Positions 6,160 to 11,096 of a stretch of 64,000 nt of DNA are shown one piece after another. Where the stretch lies: contig HG799467.1 of the NCBI GenBank assembly GCA_000531095.1, forward strand, positions 424,421 through 488,420. Reading direction: 5' to 3'. The first letter of the stretch is position 1; every line of letters starts with the position of its first letter. The DNA is from Gemmata massiliana (GTDB taxonomy: Bacteria > Planctomycetota > Planctomycetia > Gemmatales > Gemmataceae). The notes beneath the pieces were generated by a model. It was not told the DNA's origin and searched no databases. It was given only the letters and a program-made list of their open reading frames with translations. Position numbers and translations under genes: made by a program.

Positions 6160-7785
6160 ATGTGGGGCCGCAACCTTCTTTTCATTGCGCTTGTGGCGGG
6201 AGCGACGTTCGCGCTGCGGGCGAGCCTGTTCCCGCTGTACACCGAATCGCGCAAGATCAAGTTCGACTCGGCCCACACAGAACGGGATGATTTCCGCACA
6301 GCCGTCAGTCGAGTCGATCACTCGTTCCGTGAAGATTGGGCCGAGAAGCAAATTCAACCCGCGTCGCGCGCGAACGATCTCGCAGTCGCGCGCCGACTGT
6401 CACTCGCACTAACCGGAAGCGTTCCGTCACTGGAAGAGATCCGGCAGTTCGAGCAACAGCCGCCCGAAAAGCGGCTCGACGGCTGGGCGAACCACTTGCT
6501 CCGCGACCGCCGGTTCGCGGACTACTTCGCGGACCGACTCGCGCGGGCCTTCGTCGGCACCGAGGACGGCCCGCTCCTCACGTACCGCAAGCGCCGGTAC
6601 ATCTCGTGGCTCGGTGACGAACTCTTCAAGAACACGTCGTATGCCGAAATCGTGCGGCAAATGATTGCGGCCCAGGGGCTGAACACGGACACGCCCGCCG
6701 TCAACTTCATCGCGGCGACGTTCGACGAAAACAAGAAGGCGCCGGACGCCGAGAAGCTCGCGATCCGCGTGACGCGCGCGTTCCTCGGGCTCCGCATCGA
6801 TTGCGCCCAGTGCCACGACCACTTCCTGGAACCCGCGTGGAAACAAACGCACTTCCAGGCGCTCGCCGCGTTCTTCGGTCAAACGAAGCACGCGGTCACG
6901 AACATCGCGGACACGAACAAAGGCGAATACGAATTCGAGGACCGCGTGGCGGGCGGAACGCACGAAATCGCCCCGTCGGTGCCGTTCGCGCCCGCACTGC
7001 TCCCGGAGCACGGGACACGGCGCGAACGGCTCGCGTCATGGGTCACCGACCCAGGTAACGTCTACTTCGCCCGCGCCGCGGTGAATCGTGTTTGGGCCAT
7101 GATGTTCGGGCGCCCGCTCTTGCGACGAGTTGAAGCGCAAACACTCGATGAGATGAGCGCCGAAAAGATCCCACCCGCGTTGCGCATTCTGGCGGACGAC
7201 TTCGCCGCCCACAATCACGACCTGCGCCGACTGATTCTACTCATCGCGTCCACGGAAGTGTTCCGGCTCGACAGCGCGGCCGAGTTCGAGATCACGGACA
7301 CACACGACGACTCCTGGGCCGTGTTCCCACTTACGCGGTTGCGCCCGGAACAAGTGATCGGTAACGTGATTCAGGCCGCGAGCGTGAAAACGATCAACCA
7401 GCAATCGCACATCTTCGTGCGGGCCATGCGGTACTTCAACGAGCGGGACTTCGTCAAGCGTTACGGCGACGCGGACGACGACGAGTTCGCGCGGGCACAC
7501 GGCACCATCCCGCAGCGCCTCCTGATGATGAACGGCGATCTTGTGGACGGCAAAGCAAAGGACGAGATCCTCAGCGCGTCCACGCAGATCGCGCTGTTCG
7601 CCCCCAACGACGCCGCGGCCGTCGAAACCGCGTACCTGGCCGTGCTAACGCGCCGCCCCACACAAAAGGAAACGGAGCACTTCACGGCGAAACTCGCCAA
7701 CACCACCGGCGACGACCGAAAGCGCCTACTCGCGGACCTGTACTGGGTGCTGTTCAACTCGACCGAGCTGAGCTGGAATAAATGA
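6160..7785 (+). CDS. DUF1549/DUF1553 protein
   Basis: A 541-residue protein with one N-terminal membrane or signal segment (5-20), then a DUF1549 domain containing the conserved CAQCHDH (215-221, a c-type-heme-like CxxCH) and a C-terminal DUF1553 domain rich in R and W (ARAAVNRVWAMMFGRPL). In planctomycetes such proteins are encoded beside DUF1501 proteins; they are exported and of unknown biochemical role, sometimes in sulfatase or polysaccharide clusters. The DUF1501 partner is at 9334, but about 1.5 kb of other DNA separates them. No PSD1 domain is present, so this is the short architecture. Confidence 0.93.
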   Translation: MWGRNLLFIALVAGATFALRASLFPLYTESRKIKFDSAHTERDDFRTAVSRVDHSFREDWAEKQIQPASRANDLAVARRLSLALTGSVPSLEEIRQFEQQPPEKRLDGWANHLLRDRRFADYFADRLARAFVGTEDGPLLTYRKRRYISWLGDELFKNTSYAEIVRQMIAAQGLNTDTPAVNFIAATFDENKKAPDAEKLAIRVTRAFLGLRIDCAQCHDHFLEPAWKQTHFQALAAFFGQTKHAVTNIADTNKGEYEFEDRVAGGTHEIAPSVPFAPALLPEHGTRRERLASWVTDPGNVYFARAAVNRVWAMMFGRPLLRRVEAQTLDEMSAEKIPPALRILADDFAAHNHDLRRLILLIASTEVFRLDSAAEFEITDTHDDSWAVFPLTRLRPEQVIGNVIQAASVKTINQQSHIFVRAMRYFNERDFVKRYGDADDDEFARAHGTIPQRLLMMNGDLVDGKAKDEILSASTQIALFAPNDAAAVETAYLAVLTRRPTQKETEHFTAKLANTTGDDRKRLLADLYWVLFNSTELSWNK

Positions 7786-8032
7786 CGGGGTAATCTCAGC
7801 ACTGGAACGACCAACTCGCTCGTTTCTTATCACACCGAACCAGCAACGAAATACTCGCCAACAAGTGTGGCAATCCGATCAACACATCACGCACTTTACC
7901 CAGCTACTGTAATTGCGAGTTTTCGGCACCTCATTTCGCGGCGGATAAATTGTTAAAATCCATGATTGACCGGAGTCACAGAGCAGGCGATAAAGTAACC
8001 TCGCTCCCTACAAAACGGGGAACCATGCAAAC

Positions 8033-8338
8033 ATGAAAAGGACGAACGCTGTAAGTGCCATTCGCAAAGCCGTAGAAGCGTGTTCCGATGCGTTGAAAAC
8101 CTGGGCGCACGCCAAACCCGAACTCGCAAAAGCCGTGTTCGAGGCGGGTCACCGAGGCCTCATTTCCTTCCGCCACGCGATCCACACCGCCCTGCAAGAA
8201 TGTGGGACCAAGGTCCACCTGACCGGAAAAGACATTCTGTCCCTCTTCCAACGGGTCGGCGGGAAACGCACACAAAACCCGGCCGAGGCCGAGTTGGTGC
8301 GAAGAATTCGAGGGCGTTGTTCGATCGACCGAGTGTAG
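8033..8338 (+). CDS. Small hypothetical protein
   Basis: A 101-residue mostly helical protein (MKRTNAVSAIRKAVEACSDA) with many Lys, Arg and Ala residues and no motif I recognise. It starts at an ATG preceded by GGGGA about 16 nt upstream. It lies in the AT-richer stretch separating the DUF1549/1553 and DUF1501 genes. No paralogue appears in the window. It may be a genuine accessory gene brought in with the insert, or a chance frame. Confidence 0.45.
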   Translation: MKRTNAVSAIRKAVEACSDALKTWAHAKPELAKAVFEAGHRGLISFRHAIHTALQECGTKVHLTGKDILSLFQRVGGKRTQNPAEAELVRRIRGRCSIDRV

Positions 8339-8683
8339 TCTCCTATTTTCACGAATTGTCGATAACACACAGCGAATAGATGGCAACCCGGTCCTTTCCG
8401 AACTCACGTCAACCTCTCCCCCAATAAATGCCCACTCTCCCGAAGGTTAGCCCGGACCGCGTGTTATGAAACACGCGCCGGTACGCCGGTCGAGGTCTGT
8501 TCGATAATGGCTCACCTCTTCACAAATTGCCCGAATTCGCCCTCAACACCTCCGCTAATGAATTCGCAACCAAATTGCGAAAGCAACCAGTTGGTAACTT
8601 TAACGGACGCAAAGCCGGTGTAAGCATTCAGGAATGTCGCGGTAAGTATTGGTGCTTGCAAATTAGAATGCGCGTCACCTATA
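8339..8683. other. AT-richer gene-free stretch
   Basis: About 345 nt between two hypothetical genes, visibly lower in GC than the rest of the window. Apart from the promoter-like site at its right end I see no coding frame, RNA gene or repeat. Confidence 0.5.
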
Positions 8684-8685
8684 AT
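8656..8685 (+). promoter_or_regulatory. Near-consensus sigma-70 promoter
   Basis: TTGCAA (8656-8661), an 18-nt spacer and TATAAT (8680-8685) form an almost ideal housekeeping promoter. The -10 box overlaps the first ATG of the next frame (8684), so transcription starting near 8692 would exclude that codon. This favours the ATG at 8717 as the real start. Confidence 0.65.
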
Positions 8686-8716
8686 GTTAAATGATTTGGT
8701 GGTAGCGAGAGCTGGA

Positions 8717-9175
8717 ATGCGACTACACCAACAGACCGAGTGGGAAGCCCTGGGGCTTATGTGCGAACTGAGCAAGGAAGCCAAAGCCCGTATCGGCAAC
8801 GGTACCGTTAAAATGGCCGAGGATGATGCTAACTACAAGTCAATGAAAGATGAAGAATTCTTCAATTTCTTCGCAGGAATCCTCAATCACGCGCAAAAGC
8901 GAATTCTGAGAATCCAAGAGGACCGGGGGATTAAAGGCAGAGCCCGGAGGAAAGCGAACCCGATCAGTCTCCGAGACGGTGTGGTCCAGCTACTAAAAAA
9001 GCACGGCCGACTGAACGTTAAGCAAATCGCGGACCTCATGATTTCGGAACTGAATTTTGACACAGAATCAACGGGCGAGCGGTGGAAGCGGTCGGTTTAC
9101 CAAGGGGGCATCGTTCCGTTACTCAAAAGCTTCAAAATCAAGAAAGATTCAGACCGCCACTATTTCGTGGACTAG
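8717..9175 (+). CDS. Hypothetical protein with a winged-helix-like C-terminus
   Basis: A protein of about 152 residues starting MRLHQQTEWEALGLMCELSK. The first ~70 residues are helical and charged. The last ~75 include a Lys/Arg linker (GRARRKA) and then VVQLLKKHGRLNVKQIADLM, which looks like a helix-turn-helix or winged-helix segment such as those at the ends of phage or restriction-related proteins. The start at 8717 is chosen because a promoter -10 box covers the earlier ATG. The gene sits in AT-richer DNA between two planctomycete-type genes and looks transferred. The DNA-binding suggestion is an inference. Confidence 0.6.
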   Translation: MRLHQQTEWEALGLMCELSKEAKARIGNGTVKMAEDDANYKSMKDEEFFNFFAGILNHAQKRILRIQEDRGIKGRARRKANPISLRDGVVQLLKKHGRLNVKQIADLMISELNFDTESTGERWKRSVYQGGIVPLLKSFKIKKDSDRHYFVD

Positions 9176-9333
9176 CACACTCTGAGTGCGCCCCACCACT
9201 AGCACAAATTGTGCCCGTCAGCGTTCGCACCCAGCTCCAGCTCTCTGAAACTCTCCTCACGATCTCCGGGTACATCTCTTCACCGTACTACATTTGCCAG
9301 TGTGCCGGCCCGATCTTATTCGGCGGAGCTACT

Positions 9334-10596
9334 GTGAACCCGCTTCTTCCGAATTTCAACCGTCGTCATTTCCTCGCGGCCGCGGGCGCCTCTTCCCTTG
9401 CTTGGCTCACGCCGCTGGGTACGGCACTAGCTCGCGCAGCGGAGAAGGATCGGGCACCCGCGAAGTCGGTCGTTGTACTGTGGATGGGCGGCGGACCGAG
9501 TCAACTGGAAACGTTCGACCCGAAGCCGGGAACCGACATCGCCGCTGGCACCAAAGCCATCAACACATCGGTCAAGGGGGTGCAACTCGCGGCCGGTCTC
9601 GAACAACTCGCGGAGCAGATGCAGCACGTCGCACTGGTACGGTCGCTTTGGAGCAAAGAGGGCGACCACGAACGGGGCACCTACGCGCTGAAAACCGGCT
9701 ACCGCCCCGACGCGACCGTGGCGCACCCGTCACTCGGAGCGATCGTATGTCACGACCTGCCGAATAAGAACGTCGACATTCCCCGGCACGTGTCCATCAT
9801 GCCGAACGAGTGGCCCGCACGCGGCGGGGTGCTCGGCGCCCAGTTTGATGCGTTTAAAGTACACGACCCAAAGGACGGCGTGCCGGACGTAACCCCGCAC
9901 GTTTCACCCGAGCGTTTCGAGCAACGCCTCGAAGACCTCAAAGTGGTAGAAGAAGCGTTCGCGAGGGGACGTGGGAAACGTGTCGAGGCGACCGGGCACA
10001 AAGACACAATGGACCGCGCCCGCAAAATGATGAGTTCCGACCAACTCAAAGCGTTCGACGTGTCCCGTGAACCCGGCGCGGTTCGCAAGGAGTACGGCGA
10101 CACACCGTTCGGGCGCGGGTGCCTGGCCGCACGGCGGTTGATCGAACTCGGGGTGCGGTGCGTCGAAGTTACGCTCGCCGGGTGGGACAGCCACGCGAAC
10201 AATCACGACATCACCACTCGATTAAAGGGCGAACTCGATCCGGCCTTTGCCGCACTAATCCGCGACCTCGCGAACCGCGGCACACTGAAGGACACAGTCG
10301 TGTTGTGCGTTGGCGAGTTCGGGCGCACCCCGCAGCTCAACGCACTCGGAGGGCGCGACCACTGGCCGCACAACTTCACCGCGGCGCTGGCGGGCGGGGG
10401 CATTAAGGGCGGTACCGTCGTGGGCGAAAGTGACCCCGCCGGTGGAAAAGAGCCAAAGGACAAGCACCCCGCGGCAAACTTGCACGCGACCGTCCTCAAG
10501 GCGCTCGGCATCGATTGGGAAAAAACATTCCGCAGCCCGATCGGGCGCACGTTTGCTCGCAGCGAGGGTACGCCCATCGACGCAATCCTGAGCTGA
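9334..10596 (+). CDS. DUF1501 protein, Tat-exported
   Basis: A protein of about 420 residues. I place the start at GTG 9334, since the frame upstream is not protein-like and this start exposes a twin-arginine signal peptide (NRRHFLAAAGASSLAW, about residues 9-24). The body has the DUF1501 pattern related to sulfatase/alkaline-phosphatase folds: VVVLWMGGGPSQLETFDPKP early, GWDSHANNHD in the middle and VCVGEFGRTPQLN with GGRDHWPHNF late, all likely metal or active-site segments. These proteins usually work beside a DUF1549/DUF1553 partner, here at 6160-7785, in the periplasm. The enzymatic role is unproven. Confidence 0.93.
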   Translation: MNPLLPNFNRRHFLAAAGASSLAWLTPLGTALARAAEKDRAPAKSVVVLWMGGGPSQLETFDPKPGTDIAAGTKAINTSVKGVQLAAGLEQLAEQMQHVALVRSLWSKEGDHERGTYALKTGYRPDATVAHPSLGAIVCHDLPNKNVDIPRHVSIMPNEWPARGGVLGAQFDAFKVHDPKDGVPDVTPHVSPERFEQRLEDLKVVEEAFARGRGKRVEATGHKDTMDRARKMMSSDQLKAFDVSREPGAVRKEYGDTPFGRGCLAARRLIELGVRCVEVTLAGWDSHANNHDITTRLKGELDPAFAALIRDLANRGTLKDTVVLCVGEFGRTPQLNALGGRDHWPHNFTAALAGGGIKGGTVVGESDPAGGKEPKDKHPAANLHATVLKALGIDWEKTFRSPIGRTFARSEGTPIDAILS

Positions 10597-10742
10597 CGCG
10601 CGCACCAATCGCCACTGCCCGCGCGCCAGATGAACCGATCTTAGCTCGACTGGTGCCGAACCTCAGTGCTCAAGCCGCTGGGCCGGCTCTCGAAGAATTC
10701 CTGCACGGGTGCGGTACGTCTTCGCGAGCCGGGAGCCCCGAC

Positions 10743-11096
10743 CTATGGCAAAACGGCCTCGCCCCAGAGCCACCGGCGGCCCACGCACAGGACGTTGGAG
10801 AATGTCACGACCAATGTCCGGGCCGGCGTGAGGGCCGTGGCGGTGGTGAAGACGCGCTCGTCGCGGTGCGTCCCAGTTGCGTCGCGCACGAACGCCCAGT
10901 TGGGCAACTCCAGGAACCGCCCGAAGAACGCTTTCTTCGCTTCGCCGTAAGCCGCGATCTGCTCCCACCCGTCGGCCCCGGCAATGATCGCGCAGGTGGC
11001 GATGGTCAGGATGTCGGTCAACAGGTGGAGTTTGTTCTCGGTGTCGCGGGGCGGGTCCGGTACGTCGGCGAACACTGTGGCGAGCGGCAAGGGCAT
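10743..11096 (-). mobile_element. ISAs1-family transposase remnant (N-terminal part)
   Basis: The minus strand reads VFADVPDPPRDTENKLHLLT followed by DILTIATCAIIAGADGWEQI and AYGEAKKAFFGRFLELPN, the N-terminal DDE-associated domain of ISAs1-type (H-repeat) transposases. After LELPN the sequence jumps to unrelated codons. The catalytic region is missing, so the element is dead. It lies between the DUF1501 gene and a sugar epimerase. Confidence 0.7.

What the first reader, a model, noticed from the sequence alone, without database searches (positions are those of the whole stretch)
7786..9333. AT-richer island with two unknown genes between DUF1549/1553 and DUF1501 partners
The two planctomycete partner genes normally sit together. 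Here ~1.5 kb of lower-GC DNA with its own near-consensus sigma-70 promoter and a possible winged-helix protein separates them. This looks like a recent small insertion without recognisable transposase, possibly a defence or toxin-type pair.
Basis: partly seen in the sequence, partly recalled or inferred. Interest (0 to 1): 0.5.

Follow-up and report, generated by a model that had tools for sequence, protein, structure and literature searches.

The report
Clade-specific two-gene islet beside prophage site
Between two usually neighbouring planctomycete genes lies a small AT-richer stretch with two real but unrecognised genes, found only in very close relatives, at a junction where a sister species carries a prophage; this is an ordinary accessory-gene islet whose function is unknown.

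Summary
Window 7786-9333 has GC 0.52 against 0.64 for the window, the lowest of its 1.5-kb stretches, and lies exactly between a DUF1549/DUF1553 gene and a DUF1501 gene. Both small ORFs are real genes by substitution pattern. But it is not species-recent, and a toxin-antitoxin or defence pair is not supported: ORF1 occurs without ORF2 in one genome, and nothing matched the defence library. New here: in that genome (G012) a ~23.5-kb prophage with a large serine integrase sits in the same junction, inserted at a TTG core within the last five codons of the DUF1549/1553 gene. So the junction contains a phage attachment site and its content varies. Neither protein has a recognised relative; ORF2's C-terminus is winged-helix-like only in a low-confidence model. 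Most likely: accessory orphan genes parked at, or left by elements using, this site. Ordinary kind, modest interest.

The parts
6160..7785 (+). DUF1549/DUF1553 (PSCyt2/PSD1) gene, left flank; the end of its G012 orthologue is the prophage attachment site
   Evidence: Pfam; G012 orthologue split at TTG in its last five codons
7765..7785 (+). uninterrupted counterpart of the G012 phage attachment site (GAGCTGAGCTGGAATAAATGA; CTG at 7768-7770 stands where G012 has the TTG core)
   Evidence: gene ends of G000 and 14 other genus orthologues beside attL and attR of G012
7786..9333 (+). AT-richer islet between the partner genes, GC 0.52
7966..7994 (+). possible ORF1 promoter, TTGACC-17-GATAAA; same hexamers and spacing in G012, one change in each hexamer in G008
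   Evidence: read by eye; not reported by the scanner
8033..8338 (+). ORF1, 101-aa orphan protein, mostly helical in a low-confidence model
8507..9281 (+). approximate extent of the ORF2 segment present in G000 and G008 and absent from G012
   Evidence: alignment
8656..8685 (+). near-consensus sigma-70 promoter-like site before ORF2 (TTGCAA-18-TATAAT)
   Evidence: at chance level by count
8717..9175 (+). ORF2, 152-aa orphan protein; C-terminal H-H-H-E-E order compatible with a winged helix
9334..10596 (+). DUF1501 gene, right flank; its GTG start appears to come from the inserted side (inference)

Best explanation
This is a clade-specific accessory islet of two independent orphan genes that settled in a labile junction between two planctomycete partner genes, a junction that also contains a phage attachment site. 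Shown: the junction is empty in the sister pair of genomes (the genes abut), holds ORF1 and ORF2 in G000 and G008, holds ORF1 plus a ~23.5-kb serine-integrase prophage in G012, and holds small genes without detectable similarity to ORF1/ORF2 in four more distant relatives. Shown: ORF1 and ORF2 are under purifying selection and each was found once per carrying genome. Inferred: ORF1 was gained before the G012/G000/G008 split; ORF2 was gained on the G000+G008 branch or lost in G012. Inferred, weaker: ORF2 is a small DNA-binding regulator with a C-terminal winged helix, made from its own promoter, and the islet is cargo or residue of earlier elements that used the same attachment site. ORF1's biochemical role cannot be told from sequence; its low-confidence model is helical, so the guess is a small cytoplasmic accessory protein.
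For: Comparative anatomy of the junction in 16 genus genomes; trees placing (G012,(G000,G008)) together (100/99 for the three in the DUF1549/1553 tree, 100/98 in the DUF1501 tree) with G001 and G004 next in the DUF1549/1553 tree (95/91 for the five); prophage genes (terminase, portal, capsid, adaptor, integrase) in G012 and TTG-core attL/attR with the original gene end displaced to attR: 22 of 30 bases match the G008 gene end, against 18 for the next place on that strand and 19 for the best on the other strand of the 38.5-kb stretch; islet GC 0.52 close to the 0.53 of the G012 insert, flanking genes 0.63-0.66; coding pattern; narrow distribution.
Against: No phage or transposon domain was found in the islet's frames of 60 aa or more and no second att copy: the 10-base repeat GAGCTGGAAT (7770 and 8709) is near chance level (3 ten-mer repeat pairs seen, 1.7 expected). 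ORF1 lies outside the G012 prophage. Neither protein was found in viral contigs, nor ORF2 in phage or plasmid records. The AlphaFold models have mean pLDDT 58 and 57, the two strands of the supposed wing lie at or next to the least confident stretch (142-152, pLDDT under 50), and fold search gave nothing significant. The promoter-like site is no more than shuffles give. In G001/G004 the empty state could also have arisen by deletion. The DUF1501 tree places G001+G004 less firmly.
Confidence: 0.6

Rival explanations
1. Toxin-antitoxin or two-gene defence module that arrived as a unit.
For: Two small adjacent co-directional genes of low GC; a possible DNA-binding C-terminus in ORF2; position at a phage attachment site.
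Against: ORF1 stands without ORF2 in G012; 378 bp with a promoter-like site lie between them; no PADLOC match at E<=1 and no Pfam or NCBIfam match within cut-offs; no homologues moving together elsewhere were found.
Confidence: 0.1
2. Decayed remnant of a former prophage or integrative element at the same serine-integrase site, with ORF1 and ORF2 as retained cargo (this overlaps with the weaker half of the best explanation).
For: Same junction as the G012 prophage, prophage-like GC, orphan genes, varied content of the junction among relatives.
Against: No recognisable phage gene, integrase or att pair in 1.5 kb; no relatives found in viral collections; the DUF1549/1553 gene end is uninterrupted in G000 and G008.
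Confidence: 0.3
3. Ancestral genes of the junction, lost in most relatives, rather than an insertion.
For: Other relatives also have small genes in this junction (G003, G005, G009, G013).
Against: Those genes show no detectable similarity to ORF1/ORF2, and no convincing homologue was found elsewhere in 95 family genomes or in the samples of 343 phylum and 347 class genomes.
Confidence: 0.1

Closest known systems
Lineage-specific genomic islets at phage attachment sites / integration hot spots (general kind, from established knowledge, not from a call)
   Same: Low-GC accessory orphan genes between conserved genes; a prophage with a large serine integrase occupies the same junction in a sister species.
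   Different: No integrase, att pair or mobile gene seen in the islet itself; the link to mobile elements is by position and composition only.
HK97-type prophages with large serine integrases
   Same: The G012 element has a terminase, portal, Phage_capsid (PF05065) protein and a Resolvase+Recombinase integrase next to attR; relatives of its head module lie in IMG/VR loci L079 and L080.
   Different: It is in G012, not in this window; ORF1 and ORF2 are outside it.
Winged-helix transcription regulators
   Same: ORF2's C-terminal half is modelled as helix-helix-helix-strand-strand; Foldseek rank 2 is the DNA-binding domain of Rok, E 0.64, not significant.
   Different: No profile match within a cut-off, low model confidence, no significant fold match.

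Membership tests
Genomic islet / insertion at a variable junction | Present in some relatives, absent at the same place in others | tested here: met
   Empty in G001 and G004, occupied in G000, G008 and (ORF1) G012
Genomic islet / insertion at a variable junction | Composition differs from the host | tested here: met
   GC 0.521 vs 0.638; 11 of 6246 windows as low, all at this locus
Serine-integrase integrative element (for the islet itself) | Integrase gene and flanking att copies | tested here: not met
   No integrase domain in the six islet frames of 60 aa or more; no att pair clearly above chance
Serine-integrase prophage (for the G012 element) | Large serine integrase, phage structural genes, short shared core with split attB | tested here: met
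Toxin-antitoxin module | Two genes that occur together as a pair | tested here: not met
   ORF1 without ORF2 in G012
Toxin-antitoxin module | Toxicity of one product neutralised by the other | not testable with these tools
   needs expression experiments
Known anti-phage defence system | Match to a defence protein model | tested here: inconclusive
   No match in PADLOC at E<=1; undescribed systems are not covered
Winged-helix DNA-binding protein (ORF2) | Winged-helix fold | tested here: inconclusive
   Secondary-structure order fits, but mean pLDDT 58 with the strands in or beside the worst stretch; fold search not significant

The most novel reading that the evidence does not exclude
ORF1 and ORF2 found two new protein families restricted to one planctomycete clade, and ORF2 is a winged-helix regulator or phage-exclusion protein kept at a phage attachment site (omega 0.02), so that the junction is a small arms-race locus where islets and prophages replace one another.
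Probability: 0.12. Interest if true: 0.5.

Novelty: new member of a known kind. Interest (0 to 1): 0.3.

Why it matters
It turns a vague 'odd AT-rich patch' into a dated, clade-specific gain at a junction that a sister species' prophage also uses, and gives a concrete serine-integrase attachment site at the 3' end of a planctomycete DUF1549/1553 gene. In the listings of my paper searches (0 papers; 72: 15 of 34 listed; 76: 11 of 11; 77: 0; 78: 12 of 17) no title or abstract start was about such a site; no paper was opened. The site and its integrase might serve genetics in a group with few tools (inference). The two orphan proteins themselves remain unexplained.

Tried and rejected
Profile searches of ORF1/ORF2 in Pfam, NCBIfam, PHROGs, PADLOC and PDB sequences gave only sub-threshold matches or none. 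Two weak ORF2 hits in family genomes (G024 E 0.003, 38% over 50 aa; G011 E 0.009, 23%), each with a stop inside, were judged chance. An Rfam scan of 7600-9500 found nothing. The C-terminal 72 residues of ORF2 alone found only G000 and G008 among 59 genomes. Overlapping frames: a plus-strand frame upstream of ORF2 has two stops in G008 and was rejected; the minus-strand frame 8512-8799 stays open in G008 but ends 8 residues earlier, overlaps ORF2's start and has no Pfam or PHROG match, so I did not take it as a gene, though it is not excluded. The 10-base repeat GAGCTGGAAT as an att remnant was rejected as near chance. A lead from remembered HARE-type winged-helix sequences was not confirmed by any search. 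Searching viral contigs with the G012 integrase and with the attachment-site pattern gave nothing; the two phage records found by terminase gave no match to the DUF1549/1553 protein (0 of 2), which as the tool says shows nothing. Of 10 G012 prophage proteins put to PHROGs, 2 had no match. ORF2 is not significantly more constrained than DUF1501 (Fisher p 0.16), though more than ORF1 (p 0.012). ORF1 was not searched in the phage and plasmid record collections. The phylum sample returned only G000 (1 of 343), so the known carrier G008 was evidently not drawn. In the trees I set the gene starts by hand and the G003 DUF1501 protein is cut by its contig end. No paper was opened; only search listings were seen.

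Full report
What is there. The window lies in a 9.27-Mb genome (G000). It is a planctomycete, probably of the Gemmata group; that placing is my recall from gene content and size, no call names it. Between a DUF1549/DUF1553 gene (6160-7785) and a DUF1501 gene (from GTG 9334) lie 1548 bases with GC 0.521 against 0.638 in the window. Of 6246 sliding windows of that size 11 are as low, and all windows below 0.55 start at 7321-8151. Two ORFs run in the same direction as the flanks: ORF1 8033-8338 (101 aa) and ORF2 8717-9175 (152 aa; a longer start at 8684 overlaps the -10 box). A TTGCAA-18-TATAAT site stands at 8656-8685, where shuffles give 0.9 such hits on average; it is unchanged in G008.

Are they genes? 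Between G000 and its closest relative G008, ORF2 (163-codon frame) has 36.5 synonymous and 3.5 non-synonymous changes (omega 0.02) and ORF1 16 and 10 (omega 0.18); 35 of 40 and 17 of 26 differences fall on third positions. ORF1 keeps omega about 0.2 against G012. Both are therefore coding genes under purifying selection. ORF2's constraint is not significantly above that of DUF1501 (p 0.16).

Where else? ORF2 was found in 2 of 99 relatives, again only in G000 and G008 at convincing scores among 95 family genomes (4 of 95 at E<=0.01, two of them weak), and in 1 of 343 phylum genomes (G000; G008 was evidently not in that sample). ORF1 was found in 3 of 99, 3 of 95 and, as a three-row profile, 3 of 347 class genomes: G000, G008 and G012. 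Scans of viral contigs and of genome contigs, which reach close relatives and may leave out the window's own kin, gave none; ORF2 was also not found in plasmid and phage records.

The junction across the genus. Both partner genes were found in 16 of 19 genus genomes at E<=1e-150. The gap between the aligned genes is about zero in G001 and G004, where a stop and a start codon share TGATG, 1551 bp in G000, 1535 in G008, 404 in G009, 728 in G013, 2001 in G003, 2445 in G005 and 24.4 kb in G012. In G002 and G016 the partners lie far apart on one contig, in G017 and G011 about 20 kb apart in opposite orientation, and in G010, G006 and G007 on different contigs. The gaps in G003, G005, G009 and G013 hold small genes without detectable similarity to ORF1/ORF2. 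Trees of both partners put G000 with G008, then G012; in the DUF1549/1553 tree G001 and G004 come next (95/91 for the five), in the DUF1501 tree that is not resolved. So ORF1 was most simply gained before the three split, and ORF2 gained by G000+G008 or lost by G012. The gain is clade-specific but not species-recent (dS 0.25-0.62 for ORF1, 0.45 for ORF2).

The prophage. In G012 the 24.4 kb of GC 0.53 encode a terminase large subunit, portal, HK97-type capsid protein, head-tail adaptor, tail terminator and, at the right end, a 660-aa protein with Resolvase and Recombinase domains (PHROG integrase). The DUF1549/1553 gene of G012 departs from its relatives after GAGTTG, four sense codons before its stop; the missing end, TTGAGCTGGAACAAATAG, reappears 23,514 bases further right, left of ORF1. 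In the 38.5-kb stretch this is the best match to the G008 gene end (22 of 30; next 18 on that strand, 19 on the other). The phage thus entered at a TTG core within the last five codons and replaced the end (ELSWNK in G000 and G008, ELATNR in G012, 541 residues in all three). IMG/VR holds two records with 81% and 65% identical terminases and similar portal, capsid and adaptor genes. The junction where the islet sits therefore contains a phage attachment site, in G012 at least; in G000 the core position reads CTG.

What do the proteins do? No library gave a match within its cut-off. AlphaFold2 models from 2 and 3 sequences have mean pLDDT 58 and 57. ORF2's residues 82-152 are modelled as three helices and two strands, the order of a winged helix, but the strands lie in or beside the least confident stretch; the fold searches gave nothing significant. 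I take a small DNA-binding regulator as the likeliest role of ORF2 (about even odds, inference) and leave ORF1 as a helical accessory protein (inference). A toxin-antitoxin pair is unlikely because ORF1 stands without ORF2 in G012.

Verdict. Interest 0.3.

Noticed in passing
L025:3540 to L026:8056 (G012:C1:4701539-4725055): A ~23.5-kb prophage with a large serine integrase inserted at a TTG core in the last codons of the DUF1549/1553 gene, giving the gene a phage-supplied end of the same length; it also carries a DUF5131 gene and two glycosyltransferase-like genes.
   Followed up: yes
window 10743-11096 (-): A DDE_Tnp_1-associated domain (PF13808, E 5.9e-16), the N-terminal part of an ISAs1-type transposase (type name recalled), just downstream of the DUF1501 gene; alignable G000/G008 DNA also ends near 10600.
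   Followed up: partly
L026:8126-8195: In G012, between the prophage attR and ORF1, an inverted repeat of 28 bases (ACCCGCTCGTTGACACTCGCGGTTCGCC and its complement, perfect by eye); its 15-base core was not found in this window.
   Followed up: no
window 8600-8899: DNA just upstream of and at the start of ORF2 differs by only 3-5% per 100 bp between G000 and G008, against 8-21% in the other 100-bp stretches from 7800 to 9299; possibly regulatory or a recombination patch. Parts of the DUF1549/1553 gene are as similar.
   Followed up: partly
window 6160-10593: Between G000 and G008 the synonymous divergence goes from 0.17 in the DUF1549/1553 gene to 0.46 in the DUF1501 gene across the islet, as if recombination had exchanged one side.
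   Followed up: no
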